Shown piece by piece: positions 207 through 48,534 of a stretch of DNA of 64,000 nt (position 1 is the first letter of the stretch; each line of letters begins with the position of its first letter). Below the pieces are notes generated by a model. That model saw nothing but the letters and a program-made list of their open reading frames with translations. It did no database searches and was not told the origin of the DNA. Source of the DNA: Mesorhizobium sp. ZC-5 (lineage in GTDB: Bacteria > Pseudomonadota > Alphaproteobacteria > Rhizobiales > Rhizobiaceae); contig NZ_JAOWPT010000005.1 in the NCBI RefSeq assembly GCF_025753855.1, positions 372,001 through 436,000 of the forward strand. The letters are read 5' to 3'. The translations under genes and the position numbers were made by a program.

Positions 207-3707
<3,501 letters not shown>

Positions 3708-22152: not shown

Positions 22153-22260
22153 ATGAATAAAAGCAATATCGTCTTCTTCATCCTGTTCCTGATCGTCCTG
22201 CAGGGCATCGCGACTCTGGCCTGCTTCAGATACGGGCTGGGCCGAGCCTGTCCTTGGTAG
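22153..22260 (+). CDS. Possible 35-aa single-span membrane protein
   Basis: MNKSNIVFFILFLIVLQGIA followed by TLACFRYGLGRACPW: a classic one-helix miniprotein with a Lys N-terminus and an Arg-flanked C-terminus containing two cysteines. The ribosome site is weak (CGAG only). It lies 50 bases after the preceding gene. It is reported because of its strongly membrane-like composition, but it could be fortuitous. Confidence 0.4.
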   Translation: MNKSNIVFFILFLIVLQGIATLACFRYGLGRACPW

Positions 22261-22299
22261 GCGTGGATGGAGCGGCATTCCCGGCCAAAAAGGGCCGTT

Positions 22300-22461
22300 T
22301 CATTGCCAATTACCGTGATACCAGATCAGCCAGACTACCACCGCCACCGCGGTGACGAATATCCAGTCGCGGGTGGATTTCTGGATGACTTTTAATTTTC
22401 GACCGGCCCGATACCACGACCGGCTGTGCGATTGGATCAAGGCGGAGAACCAGGCTTTCAT
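22300..22461 (-). CDS. Possible 53-aa C-tail-anchored membrane protein
   Basis: The frame encodes MKAWFSALIQSHSRSWYRAG, a basic middle (RKLKVIQKSTRDW), then one hydrophobic helix (IFVTAVAVVVWLIWYHG) ending NWQ. The charge distribution gives a consistent cytoplasm-in topology. A GGAAAG purine run lies about 12 bases upstream of the ATG. It is convergent with the small ORF ending at 22260. Function unknown. Confidence 0.45.
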   Translation of the reverse strand: MKAWFSALIQSHSRSWYRAGRKLKVIQKSTRDWIFVTAVAVVVWLIWYHGNWQ

Positions 22462-22503
22462 TGTCTCGCGGCTTTCCAAGGTACCATCGCGCGGCGGTGT
22501 TAC

Positions 22504-22520
22504 CTTAGGTGCTACCTAAG
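22504..22520. repeat. Perfect 7-bp inverted repeat CTTAGGT-GCT-ACCTAAG
   Basis: A perfect dyad with a 3-base centre between tRNA-Lys and the 53-aa ORF (both minus strand). There is no T-run on either side, so an operator or an RNA-processing hairpin is as likely as a terminator. Confidence 0.45.
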
Positions 22521-22560
22521 AGCCCGGAAAGATGCGACGAAAATCGGCTAACTTGTTTAT

Positions 22561-22636
22561 TGGTGAGCGCGCAGGGATTCGAACCCTGGACCTACTGATT
22601 AAAAGTCAGTTGCTCTACCGGCTGAGCTACGCGCTC
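22561..22636 (-). tRNA. tRNA-Lys (anticodon UUU)
   Basis: On the minus strand a complete cloverleaf of 76 bases folds: acceptor GAGCGCG/CGCGCTC, D arm GCTC/GAGC, anticodon stem ACTGA/TCAGT with loop CTTTTAA, and T arm CAGGG-TTCGAAT-CCCTG. A discriminator A and an encoded CCA follow. The anticodon read from the loop is UUU, decoding lysine AAA/AAG. No integrase or duplicated tRNA 3' end was seen nearby. Confidence 0.96.
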
Positions 22637-22845
22637 CCGTGGCCGGCAAGAACCGTCCCCGAAATTGCGGCGGAACATAGGGAGACAGGCGGGGCCGGTC
22701 AACCGGAAAAACGCCGTTGCAGCAAGCCGTTTCCTTCACCGCTTGCAAGTAGCGCGACATCACGGTTATCTGATCGCGGGGAACAAAATCCTCCCCCGCC
22801 CGTTGCTCCCGGCAAGGGACCGATGAATCCGTCGAGGAGACAACC

Positions 22846-45392: not shown

Positions 45393-46334
45393 TCAGTAGA
45401 AGCGGAAGTTCTGCGCAACCTCGTCACCCAACCTGTTGTTGTCGCGGATGAATTCGACCAGGAATTCGTGCAGGCCGGCATCGAAGATGTCCTTGATCGA
45501 ATTGACCTTCAGCTTGGCCAGGGTCTGGTCGAGCGTGTCGTGGCAGCAGTGGCGCGTGTTGTAGTCCTTCTCCAGGTAGGAAAGGCTCTCCGAGATGTTC
45601 TGGTAGCAATAGGCGAGCGACCGCGGCATGCGGCCGTTGAGGATGAGGTAGTCGGCGATGTTGGTCGGCCGGTAGTCGGCTTCGTAGACCCAACGGTACG
45701 AACGATGCGCGGCGACCGAGCGCAGGATCGATTCCCACTGATAATTGTCGAGCGTCGATCCGACCCAGGCTATCGACGGCAGCAGCACGTAATATTTGAC
45801 GTCGAGGATGCGCGCCGTGTTGTCGGCCCTCTCGATGAAAGTGCCGAGTTGGGCGAAGTCGAAATTTTCGTTGCGCAGCGCCGTGCCGTGAAATGAACCG
45901 CGGATCAGCGCCGTCTCGCGCTTGATGGCGTCGAGCACGCTCGGCAGTTCGGTCTGCTCGACCGGCCTCGCCAGCATACGCTTCAGCGCCATCCAGGCTT
46001 CGTTGATCGATTCCCAGGTCTCGCGCGTCAGCGCGGTGCGCACCATGCGGGCGTTGCTGCGTGCCGTCTCGATCGCCCCCATGACGCTCGACGCATTGGT
46101 CGGCTCGCGCAGCAGGAAATCCGACACGGTTTCGGCGTTCACGTCCTGGTGCCGCTGGCGGAAGGCGACGTCGGCGCCGGCGCTCAGGAGCACGGAGTTC
46201 CATTCCTCCGACGAACTCGCCGTCCGCGTCAGCGCCATCCGCAGGCCGGCATCGAGCAGGCGGGCCATGTTCTCCGTCCGCTCGATATAGCGGCTCATCC
46301 AGTAGAGGCCATTGGCGGTGCGGCCGAGAAGCAT
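45393..46334 (-). CDS. Alpha-E domain protein (DUF403)
   Basis: A 313-aa, entirely helical protein with the alpha-E N-terminus MLLGRTANGLYWMSRYIERT, a repeated four-helix pattern and the conserved WESILRSVAAHRSYRWVYE segment. Function unknown; it is always linked with permuted ATP-grasp and transglutaminase genes. The open frame begins earlier, inside the heptamer repeat array, so the natural start is 46334, about 11 bases after an AGGAG ribosome site. An inserted repeat-flanked element lies directly upstream, separating it from the ATP-grasp gene with which it would normally be contiguous. Confidence 0.88.
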   Translation of the reverse strand: MLLGRTANGLYWMSRYIERTENMARLLDAGLRMALTRTASSSEEWNSVLLSAGADVAFRQRHQDVNAETVSDFLLREPTNASSVMGAIETARSNARMVRTALTRETWESINEAWMALKRMLARPVEQTELPSVLDAIKRETALIRGSFHGTALRNENFDFAQLGTFIERADNTARILDVKYYVLLPSIAWVGSTLDNYQWESILRSVAAHRSYRWVYEADYRPTNIADYLILNGRMPRSLAYCYQNISESLSYLEKDYNTRHCCHDTLDQTLAKLKVNSIKDIFDAGLHEFLVEFIRDNNRLGDEVAQNFRFY

Positions 46335-46353
46335 TAGCGCGACGCTCCTCTCG

Positions 46354-46388
46354 ATAGTGAATGGTGAATAGTGAGTAGTGAGTAGTGA
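46354..46388 (+). repeat. Heptamer array (GTAGTGA-type), five units, left flank of inserted element
   Basis: ATAGTGA, ATGGTGA, ATAGTGA, GTAGTGA, GTAGTGA lie in perfect tandem register. The same heptamer, reversed, is repeated at 46784-46818 on the far side of the four-helix-bundle gene. Confidence 0.9.
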
Positions 46389-46400
46389 CAAACCGCCATC

Positions 46401-46742
46401 TCAAGGCTTCCGCTGCAGGCTACGGATCATTGCGCGCAGCATTTTGCCCAGGTCATCAGACTGGGTCAGCAACCGAAGGACGTCGCTTTCGACCATCAAA
46501 TTCACCCTTCCACACAAAATCAGATGCGTCTCCAACTCTTTGAGAGAACCCTGCGCGATCCTCAGAAACTGAATAAACGACCCTCTATGCTCCCTTCCGT
46601 AACCTTCGGCGATGTTCGCCGCGATGGAGGCTGCCGACCGTCGAACCTGCGACATCATTCCGTAAATCTCACTATTCGGAAACGCTTTGGTTGCTGCATA
46701 GCAGTCCACAGCGAGTTCGATCGCCGCCTTCCAAACAAGCAA
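46401..46742 (-). CDS. Four-helix-bundle (S23 / 23S rRNA intervening-sequence-type) protein
   Basis: 113 aa with the family core MSQVRRSAASIAANIAEGYG, REHRGSFIQFLRIAQGSLKE and LETHLILCGRVNL, a short up-down helical bundle. Relatives are encoded in rRNA intervening sequences or scattered in genomes, and their role is unknown. The family N-terminus YRDLLVWKA is legible, but no ATG exists in frame before the stop upstream, so only TTG 46742 remains; the usual start seems lost. It sits inside inverted heptamer arrays between two genes of the Anbu operon. Confidence 0.8.
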   Translation of the reverse strand: MLVWKAAIELAVDCYAATKAFPNSEIYGMMSQVRRSAASIAANIAEGYGREHRGSFIQFLRIAQGSLKELETHLILCGRVNLMVESDVLRLLTQSDDLGKMLRAMIRSLQRKP

Positions 46743-46783
46743 ATCTCTGTAGGAATTTACAGTCGTCGCCGAGCCCTTTCATT

Positions 46784-46825
46784 TCACTACTCACTACTCA
46801 CTACTCACTACTCACTACTGCCTAC
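46784..46825 (+). repeat. Heptamer array (TCACTAC), right flank of inserted element
   Basis: TCACTAC is repeated five times without error (46784-46818), then one degenerate copy (TGCCTAC). It is the reverse complement of the GTAGTGA unit at 46375-46388, so the arrays face each other and end 16 bases before the ATP-grasp stop codon. Confidence 0.9.
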
Positions 46826-46840
46826 TCACCTCCCCACCCT

Positions 46841-48253
46841 TCAATCATCCAACACCCACGTATCCTTCGTCCCGCCGCCTTGCGATGAGTTGACCACCAG
46901 CGATCCCTGCTTCAGCGCCACGCGGGTCAGGCCGCCGGGCACGATCTGGATGCGATCCGACACCAGCACGAACGGCCGCAGGTCGACATGGCGCGGCGCC
47001 AGTCCCTTTTCGGTGAGGATCGGGCAGGTCGACAGCGAAAGCGTCGGCTGCGCGATGTAGTTCGACGGGCGCGCCGCGAGTTTCTTGGCGAAATCCTCGC
47101 GCTCCTTGCGGCTGGCCGCCGGGCCGACCAGCATGCCGTAGCCGCCGGACCCGTGCACTTCCTTGACCACCAGGTCGGCAAGGTGCTCCAGCACGTATTT
47201 CAGGCTGTCCGGTTCCGAGCAGCGCCAGGTCGGGATGTTGCCGAGGATCGCCTTGCGGCCGGTGTAGAATTCGATGATCTCGGGCATATAGGAATAGATC
47301 GCCTTGTCGTCGGCGATGCCGGTGCCGGGCGCGTTGGCGATGGTGATGTTGCCGGACCGGTAGACATCCATGATGCCCGGCACGCCGAGCGTCGAATCCG
47401 GCTTGAAGGTGAGCGGGTCGAGATAGGCGTCGTCGACCCTTCGGTAGAGCACGTCGATCTGCTTGTAGCCTTCGGTCGTGCGCATCGCGACATGGCCGTC
47501 GACGACGCGCAGATCCTGCCCCTCGACCAGTTCGACGCCCATCTGGTCGGCAAGGAACGCATGCTCGAAATAGGCGGAATTGAAGCTGCCCGGGGTTAGC
47601 ACGGCGATGCGCGGTGCATCGCGCACATTATCGGGCCTCACCGCGCCCAGCGACTGCCGCAGCAACTGCGGATAGTTCTCGACCGGCCGCACCTTCACCC
47701 GCTGGAACAGCTCGGGGAAGAGCTGCATCATCGTCTCGCGGTTCTCCAGCATGTAGGAAACGCCTGACGGCGTGCGCGCATTGTCCTCGAGCACGTAGAA
47801 CTCGTTCTCGTCGATGCGCACGATGTCGACGCCGATGATGTGGGTGTAGACGCCTTTCGGCGGCCTTATGCCGATCATCTCCGGCAGGAACGCTTCGTTG
47901 GCGGCGATCAATTCCTTCGGCACGCGGCCGGAGCGCAGGATTTCCTGGCGATGATAGATGTCGTCGAGAAAGGCGTTGAGCGCCTGCACCCGCTGTTCGA
48001 TGCCCTGGGTAAGCCGCCGCCATTCGGAACCCGAGATGATGCGCGGCACGATGTCGAACGGGATCAGCCGCTCGGCGGCTTCTTCCTCGCCGTAGACGGC
48101 AAAGGTGATGCCCGTCTTGCGGAACACGCGCTCGGCGTCACGCATTTTTTCGGTAAGTCTTGCGGGGTCCTGGGCCTGAAACCAGCGATCATAGGCTGAA
48201 TATGGTTTGCGCAACCCGGTCTCTTCGGGGTGCATCTCATCGAATGCTGTCAC
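46841..48253 (-). CDS. Circularly permuted ATP-grasp protein (DUF404/407)
   Basis: About 470 aa. Recognised by PYSAYDRWFQAQDPARLTEKM near the N-terminus, the central FYVLEDNARTPSGVSYMLEN and GVELVEGQDLRVVDGHVAM segments, and the late HGSGGYGMLVGPAASRKERE. The family is predicted to couple ATP to amide-bond formation. The first ATG (48259) has no spaced ribosome site, while GTG at 48253 has AGGGGAG six bases upstream and is preferred; ATG 48235 is also possible. It heads the Anbu operon as the presumed ligase. Confidence 0.87.
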   Translation of the reverse strand: MTAFDEMHPEETGLRKPYSAYDRWFQAQDPARLTEKMRDAERVFRKTGITFAVYGEEEAAERLIPFDIVPRIISGSEWRRLTQGIEQRVQALNAFLDDIYHRQEILRSGRVPKELIAANEAFLPEMIGIRPPKGVYTHIIGVDIVRIDENEFYVLEDNARTPSGVSYMLENRETMMQLFPELFQRVKVRPVENYPQLLRQSLGAVRPDNVRDAPRIAVLTPGSFNSAYFEHAFLADQMGVELVEGQDLRVVDGHVAMRTTEGYKQIDVLYRRVDDAYLDPLTFKPDSTLGVPGIMDVYRSGNITIANAPGTGIADDKAIYSYMPEIIEFYTGRKAILGNIPTWRCSEPDSLKYVLEHLADLVVKEVHGSGGYGMLVGPAASRKEREDFAKKLAARPSNYIAQPTLSLSTCPILTEKGLAPRHVDLRPFVLVSDRIQIVPGGLTRVALKQGSLVVNSSQGGGTKDTWVLDD

Positions 48254-48534
48254 GCACATCTCCCCTGTGACGCCATTTCAGCGGCGTCAGGGCGGAAAAG
48301 CAAGCGTAATCGCATAGTTGTCGCCGGGCACGAGCCGCTGACGCGCGTTTGCCCAATTTCGCGGCACCTTGCATGCCGCTTTGCGGCGGCCTTGGGCAAC
48401 CGGCGCGGAGCCGAGTGAACCCGGAGGAAATCAGGGCCGCCAGTGAAACCCCACACGCCCGCCCGCCGTATGATATTATGGAGGTCCGGGCGAATCCGCC
48501 GGCAAGCGGCTGGCGCCAGGACGGGAGATAGCCC

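What the first reader, a model, noticed from the sequence alone, without database searches (positions are those of the whole stretch)
46354..46825. Repeat-flanked four-helix-bundle gene inserted in the Anbu operon
A GTAGTGA heptamer array (five units, 46354-46388) and its exact inverse TCACTAC (five perfect units, 46784-46818) bracket 395 bases holding an S23/IVP-type gene. The block sits between the ATP-grasp stop (46841) and the alpha-E start (46334), where these genes are usually contiguous. Such inverted arrays with a protein-coding core look like a non-autonomous mobile element rather than ordinary intergenic DNA. No transposase is present, so how it moves is unknown.
Basis: partly seen in the sequence, partly recalled or inferred. 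Interest (0 to 1): 0.75.

Follow-up and report, generated by a model that had tools for sequence, protein, structure and literature searches.

The report
Mobile S23 gene with heptamer-array ends
A tiny gene of unknown function sits between mirror-image arrays of a seven-base repeat and looks like a minimal mobile DNA element that recurs across bacteria, in one case inside ribosomal RNA genes, which may link two old puzzles: bacterial heptamer repeats and ribosomal RNA intervening sequences.

Summary
In detail: five RTRGTGA units at 46354-46388 and five TCACTAC units plus degenerate ones at 46784-46829 bracket an S23 (23S_rRNA_IVP) four-helix-bundle ORF between ATP-grasp and Alpha-E genes. It is not a local oddity. 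Period-7 or period-8 arrays lie within 220 bp of 84 of 92 S23 loci in the window's family (matched control 0 of 267), 55 of 80 best relatives from many phyla (9 of 208), 28 of 39 from elsewhere in the phylum (2 of 109) and 26 of 35 on IMG/VR contigs (7 of 79); paired arrays are mostly inverted (98 of 107). Across 298 genomes arrays track S23 (odds ratio 22; 13 within genera), not Y1 transposases or reverse transcriptases. Filled and clean empty sites exist at nuoC|nuoD, in the Anbu operon and on Nostocales plasmids. One genome has such an element inside 23S rRNA. Best reading: a minimal selfish element with tandem-array ends, of which S23-bearing rRNA intervening sequences are copies. Movement itself is not shown; S23-bearing copies are mostly inherited in place. 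Ten open-access searches listed no paper tying S23 genes in general to such arrays; one paper reports heptamers in one rRNA intervening sequence.

The parts
46354..46388 (+). distal arm (3' in operon sense): five heptamers ATAGTGA ATGGTGA ATAGTGA GTAGTGA GTAGTGA
46401..46742 (-). S23/IVP four-helix-bundle ORF read from a TTG; frame open up to 46778 without an in-frame ATG/GTG
46784..46829 (-). proximal arm (5' in operon sense): five perfect TCACTAC units on the + strand, then TGCCTAC and partial units
46335..46840 (-). whole stretch between the ATP-grasp stop and the Alpha-E start codon that holds the element; compact or gene-less in relatives
46841..48259 (-). upstream host gene: circularly permuted ATP-grasp
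45393..46334 (-). downstream host gene: Alpha-E domain protein

Best explanation
The block is one copy of a widespread minimal selfish element, here called an S23 element: a four-helix-bundle gene of about 110-130 codons between inverted tandem arrays of a 7-bp (in one protein clade 8-bp) unit. Shown: the anatomy; the link of arrays with S23; S23-bearing, gene-less and empty states of the same site; purifying selection on the protein; matching of the two arms of a locus; unit length following the protein clade; and the same anatomy inside a 23S rRNA gene of one genome. Inferred: (1) S23, whose solved relative is a ring of five four-helix bundles, binds the folded-back arrays and brings in host replication or repair to copy the element into new intergenic sites. 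(2) Fold-back copying of one arm from the other, plus slippage in whole units, keeps the arms matched while the unit changes. (3) In the transcript the arms close a stem that RNase III can cut, as reported for rRNA intervening sequences, so an insertion inside an operon or rRNA is tolerated. Gene-less array pairs are then relics or by-products.
For: Arrays (period 7 or 8) on at least one side of S23: 84/92, 55/80, 28/39, 26/35 in four sets against 0/267, 9/208, 2/109, 7/79 at matched control positions. Period spectrum near S23 in the family set: 96 zones at 7, 41 at 8, none at 4-6 or 9-12. Arms inverted in 98 of 107. Co-occurrence in 298 genomes: 79 both, 15 S23 only, 39 arrays only, 165 neither, OR 22, P 3e-27; within 16 informative genera OR 13.3, P 4e-5. 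Y1 OR 0.70 and RT OR 1.5 with arrays, neither significant; 38 of 79 genomes with arrays and S23 lack both. nuoC|nuoD in 30 chosen genomes: 10 with an S23 element (450-500 bp), 11 with 0-27 bp; in genus g97 the 9-bp gap of G241 equals the last 9 bp before nuoD in filled G098 and G295. Calothrix plasmids filled where six of eight fetched relatives have 2-3 bp; one Nostoc plasmid junction with S23, gene-less and empty states. Arms share their commonest unit in 52/81 loci against 16.8 when re-paired within sites. Period needs 2 changes on the S23 tree against 21 shuffled. dN/dS median 0.10 over 13 pairs. S23 with heptamer arms inside 23S rRNA in G532. Predicted RNA fold pairs the arms around the ORF.
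Against: No movement was observed. The S23 tree clusters by site (12 changes, shuffled mean 41.8), so S23-bearing copies move rarely, or a few old insertions were lost often. 39 of 118 array-bearing genomes have no S23 hit. Spacers of 16 gene-less elements resemble neither each other nor S23 interiors apart from one 13-bp match, which plain deletion derivatives would not predict. Eight of 107 arm pairs are direct and 25 of 80 multi-phylum loci show no array at the threshold. Control rates are not zero outside the family. In several S23 loci the arrays are degenerate. DDE, serine and tyrosine recombinases were not tested as helpers. The start codon of the window copy is uncertain. The fold energy was not compared with shuffles.
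Confidence: 0.68

Rival explanations
1. S23 and its arrays are a domesticated host system: S23 is a nucleoid, RNA-processing or regulatory protein, the heptamer palindromes are its binding sites, and the gene is flanked by its own sites for autoregulation.
For: Purifying selection on S23; tree clusters by site; arrays elsewhere in S23 genomes; unit length follows the protein clade.
Against: Clean empty sites in relatives; four S23 copies in G167, each with its own commonest unit; a copy inside 23S rRNA; patchy presence, 94 of 298 genomes.
Confidence: 0.17
2. The block is a passive element moved in trans by a Y1 (REP-associated) or other host transposase, like REPINs or MITEs.
For: Gene-less palindromes with short spacers look like REPIN-type doublets.
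Against: Y1_Tnp in 28 of 298 genomes, no association with arrays (OR 0.70, P 0.43), none found in the own genome. No target duplication seen at the g97 nuo site. Units differ between S23 copies of one genome. Other transposase types were not tested.
Confidence: 0.08
3. A retroelement related to diversity-generating retroelements: S23 works as an Avd-like partner of a reverse transcriptase that copies the element's RNA.
For: PF05635 resembles Avd (PMC10053308, passages seen); S23 and RT are weakly associated (OR 2.0, P 0.007); neighbours are more often co-directional by a noisy measure.
Against: Arrays against RT OR 1.5, P 0.09; 40 of 79 genomes with arrays and S23 have no RVT_1 hit.
Confidence: 0.07

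Closest known systems
23S rRNA intervening sequences (IVS) with an S23 ORF, as in Coxiella and Leptospira (PMC4990558)
   Same: S23 ORF in the sense strand, closed by inverted repeats; the Coxiella IVS has tandem heptamers (GACAGAT) before the ORF (passages, discussion section); G532 has heptamer arms inside 23S rRNA
   Different: The window element lies between protein genes, with arrays on both sides and gene-less relatives in the same genome
Heptamer repeats of Xanthomonas and Nostoc (PMC4692102)
   Same: Intergenic arrays of 7-bp units; in Xanthomonas often convergent inverted pairs (70 cases in Xcc, 75 in Xac; section 10 read); few pairs in Nostoc (passage)
   Different: The text search found no 'S23' or '23S' in the paper, and the authors generally found no association with mobile elements
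REPIN/RAYT elements
   Same: Short intergenic palindromic doublets in several copies
   Different: No Y1 transposase found in this genome and no association with arrays; ends are tandem arrays, not single hairpins (REP anatomy recalled; PMC3116915 seen in a listing only)
Avd of diversity-generating retroelements
   Same: Related four-helix-bundle fold (passages; the solved sequence match here is 2GSC)
   Different: None of the four neighbouring genes scanned is a reverse transcriptase

Membership tests
23S rRNA intervening sequence | S23/IVP open reading frame (some have one) | tested here: met
   PF05635 E 7e-34
23S rRNA intervening sequence | complementary ends that close the element in RNA | tested here: met
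   predicted fold of the 505-nt stretch pairs the arms around the ORF; energy not compared with shuffles
23S rRNA intervening sequence | lies inside a 23S rRNA gene | tested here: not met
   window element is between protein genes; the only Rfam match in 45800-47400 is a sub-threshold sRNA hit, E 0.97. Met for the G532 copies L333 and L334
23S rRNA intervening sequence | excised by RNase III without ligation | not testable with these tools
   needs RNA
REPIN/RAYT | associated Y1 (REP) transposase | tested here: not met
   none found in own genome; array association OR 0.70 in 298 genomes
IS/MITE | own transposase gene (IS) | tested here: not met
   between the arms the ORF list shows the S23 ORF and a 64-aa frame on the other strand overlapping it; only S23 was scanned for families
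IS/MITE | target-site duplication | tested here: inconclusive
   none seen at the g97 nuo junction; flanks too diverged at the Anbu site
Diversity-generating retroelement | reverse transcriptase beside the Avd-like gene | tested here: not met
   four neighbouring genes scanned are not RTs; two printed RVT_1 hits of the own genome lie on other contigs, the third is not in the capped list
Diversity-generating retroelement | template and variable repeats | not tested
   not searched
Bacterial heptamer tandem repeats | intergenic period-7 arrays, often inverted pairs | tested here: met

The most novel reading that the evidence does not exclude
S23 elements are a separate class of mobile element. 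A small pentameric four-helix-bundle protein, with no recombinase or reverse transcriptase of its own, builds and copies inverted arrays of a short unit by fold-back synthesis with host enzymes. It thereby spreads both its own gene and gene-less palindromes, sets the unit length, and has seeded S23-bearing rRNA intervening sequences and the heptamer repeats of many phyla.
Probability: 0.35. Interest if true: 0.93.

Novelty: new variant of a known kind. Interest (0 to 1): 0.8.

Why it matters
The function and origin of 23S rRNA intervening sequences are called unclear in PMC4990558 (discussion section). Heptamer repeats in Xanthomonas, Nostoc and Beggiatoaceae have been described with other proposed roles (passages and one section). 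If both trace back to one S23 element, an orphan protein family gains a testable role, genome-wide heptamer palindromes become its traces, and an element whose ends are tandem arrays asks for a copying mechanism. The filled and empty sites listed here can be taken to ordinary laboratory strains.

Tried and rejected
REP/RAYT mobilisation was considered because the unit contains GTAG (tetranucleotide of REPs, recalled) and is disfavoured by the Y1 counts. An RT-driven route is weakened, not excluded. Gene-less elements as simple deletion derivatives were tested: 16 distinct spacers of 22-80 bp gave 0 mutual hits at E 1e-3 and one 13-bp match to an S23 interior. Plasmid or phage carriage was tested with the window protein alone: S23 in 21 of 72,556 plasmid records (20 cyanobacterial, one Gemmatirosa) and 0 of 50,697 phage records; 35 IMG/VR loci did match with the family alignment, and whether those contigs are truly viral was not examined. 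Spacer structure was unremarkable (mean fold z -1.05; 2 of 14 below -2; mononucleotide shuffles). Neighbour orientation by longest ORF is noisy in GC-rich DNA (family set upstream 52 same, 39 opposite, downstream 69 and 23; multi-phylum set upstream 60 and 16, downstream 60 and 15), so it has little weight. Whether gene-less arrays share the unit of the S23 arms of the same genome was judged by eye only, with cases for and against.

Sampling: the family set is 92 of about 122 places (hand count) listed; fragments and other rows were not fetched. The phylum set is 39 of 43 new loci (four of the window's own family dropped) and not all places were fetched; it counts the identical L333 and L334 twice, and in four loci cut by contig ends (L318, L319, L321, L328) the gene was placed by assumption. 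The four sets overlap slightly: 246 loci, 239 distinct by the first 240 nt. Thresholds differ between calls: score 10 and 180 bp, 11 and 260 bp, 11 and 220 bp, 10 and 220 bp. The S23 hit next to an RT in G027 was not fetched. The nuo search used 30 handles that I chose.

Full report
Observation. The right array has five perfect TCACTAC units plus degenerate ones; the left has five units of RTRGTGA form, two of them exactly GTAGTGA. The ORF is PF05635/TIGR02436. In this copy no in-frame ATG or GTG precedes the TTG at 46742. The own genome has one PF05635 gene and six more inverted heptamer pairs without it; five have spacers of 23-53 bp by the two-unit pattern, the sixth (L027) is seen.

Generality. 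S23 hits occur in 94 of 298 genomes of the family. Of 92 loci taken, 59 have a period-7 array within 180 bp on at least one side and 37 on both; of 906 zones 400-1200 bp away, 1 does. Near S23 the period spectrum is 96 zones at period 7, 41 at period 8 and none at 4-6 or 9-12. Of the loci without a period-7 array many carry octamer arrays such as TAGGGGAG; several, mostly at nuoC|nuoD, show only degenerate copies. With both periods and 220 bp, 84 of 92 have an array on at least one side and 53 on both; matched positions 500-1100 bp away gave 0 of 267. The same test gave 55 of 80 (control 9 of 208) for best relatives from many phyla (Cyanobacteria, Acidobacteria, Planctomycetes, Fibrobacteres, Bacteroidota, Clostridia, Chloroflexi and one archaeon among those with arrays), 28 of 39 (2 of 109) for elsewhere in the phylum and 26 of 35 (7 of 79) for IMG/VR contigs. 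Where both sides have the same period, 98 of 107 pairs are inverted, 8 direct and 1 tied.

Co-occurrence. A generic array pattern (RTRGNSA three times) is found in 118 of 298 family genomes: 79 with S23, 39 without; 15 have S23 only and 165 neither (OR 22, P 3e-27). Octamer arrays escape this pattern; seven of the 15 S23-only genomes (G018, G062, G144, G213, G222, G256, G270) have an S23 locus with period-8 arms. Within 16 informative genera the Mantel-Haenszel odds ratio is 13.3, P 4e-5. Y1_Tnp (28 genomes) is not associated with arrays (OR 0.70, P 0.43), nor clearly is RVT_1 (111 genomes; OR 1.5, P 0.09); S23 itself is weakly associated with RVT_1 (OR 2.0, P 0.007); 38 of the 79 lack both. 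Other recombinases were not tested.

Filled and empty sites. (a) Anbu operon, 29 loci including the window's (distances run from the ATP-grasp stop to an Alpha-E motif and include its first codons): G000 and G009 have 515 and 509 bases with an S23 hit. G002, of the same genus, and G010 have gene-less inverted GTGAATG arrays (156 and 142). Ten others have 7-88 bases; in the remaining 15 the motif was not found and about 100 bases of printed sequence showed no array by eye. (b) nuoC|nuoD, 30 chosen genomes: 10 with an S23 element (450-500 bp), 11 with 0-27 bp, 5 with other content of 217-454 bp, among them G000, and 4 in which the script found no stop. In genus g97, G241 has a 9-bp gap GGCGCCAGA; the filled G098 and G295 end in the same 9 bp before nuoD, and the element starts right after the nuoC stop. 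I saw no duplication there. (c) Calothrix brevissima plasmids: an S23 element with GGGTGTA arms lies between an integrase stop and the next gene's ATG; of eight relatives fetched, six have 2-3 bp and two (L304, L307) other inserts. (d) Nostoc plasmids: an S23 element with GGGAACA arms in two; at the same junction an array-flanked stretch without S23 in Nostoc sp. ATCC 53789 (by eye; flanks 96.9% identical over 76% of the query), 50-52 bp in C057 p057_A and p057_K, UHCC 0302 and UHCC 0926, and another insert in p057_H.

Evolution. The S23 tree clusters by site: 12 changes for six site labels against 41.8 shuffled, with many forks unresolved, so most copies are probably inherited in place. Yet G000 has its copy in the Anbu operon while congener G002 has one at nuo, G098 has copies at nuo, hibd and puu, and G167 has four copies. 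The two arms of a locus share their commonest unit in 52 of 81 loci against 16.8 (maximum 28 in 2000) when arms are re-paired within sites. Unit length follows the protein: over 83 rows, period 8 needs two changes on the tree against 21 shuffled; the unit itself needs 33 against 62. The period-8 clade is found at the puu site, downstream of radC and at other places. Array lengths differ between near-identical copies, e.g. 37 and 85 bp on the right of L120 and L134. S23 is under purifying selection: 19 independent pairs, 13 with a defined ratio, median dN/dS 0.10.

Link to rRNA. In G532 two identical loci (L333, L334) have an S23 ORF inside an LSU rRNA gene (Rfam RF02541, 2499 bits over 1-3035 of L333) with heptamer arms (TGATCCC-type; a 33-bp inverted repeat of 88%). 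The same genome holds an S23 gene elsewhere with GAGTGAG arms (L330) and no rRNA match at the gathering threshold. Among all loci held, only L333 and L334 matched the flanking 23S sequence, so this is one genome. The Coxiella intervening sequence has tandem GACAGAT heptamers before its S23 ORF and is cut by RNase III (PMC4990558, passages and discussion section). So S23-bearing intervening sequences and intergenic S23 blocks look like one element type. The predicted RNA fold of the window element pairs the arms around the ORF.

Mechanism. Shown: anatomy, association, site states, matched arms, selection on S23. Inferred: S23 acts on folded-back arrays; fold-back copying and unit slippage rebuild the arms; RNase III trimming makes insertions in operons tolerable. 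Gene-less pairs have unrelated spacers (16 elements, 0 mutual hits), so the arms, not the interior, are the common part; this is the least explained fact. A domesticated host system is the main rival (0.17).

Literature. Ten full-text searches of the open-access library were made. In their listings and the passages I opened, no paper ties S23/IVP genes in general to inverted heptamer arrays. PMC4990558 reports heptamers in one rRNA intervening sequence; PMC4692102 (section 10 and passages) and PMC4679880 (passages) describe heptamers, and a text search of each found no 'S23'. Most subscription papers and preprints are not covered.

Noticed in passing
L023:2193-2241 and 2891-2976; L025:2360-2489 and 3367-3394 (own genome): Single GTAGGGA arrays face a GTAGTGA palindrome across about 0.65-0.9 kb of mostly coding-looking sequence, as if whole genes were bracketed.
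   Followed up: no
L303 (Nostoc sp. C057 p057_H), TraM junction: A roughly 300-bp insertion with AATTCAA inverted repeats is flanked by AATAGTCA and AATGGTCA, a possible 8-bp target duplication, judged by eye.
   Followed up: partly
nuoC|nuoD junction in G000, G011, G020 and G022 (L390, L409, L402, L416): The junction that holds S23 elements elsewhere holds another insert of similar size (424-454 bp) without arrays in the printed ends.
   Followed up: no
S23 loci L062, L064, L084, L171 and others: A protein clade of S23 uses 8-bp units instead of 7-bp at several sites; L169 is a separate change to period 8.
   Followed up: yes
G027:C99:21345-21647 with RVT_1 at 22198-22824: A weaker PF05635 hit (E 6e-8) lies 0.55 kb from a reverse transcriptase, possibly an Avd of a diversity-generating retroelement.
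   Followed up: no
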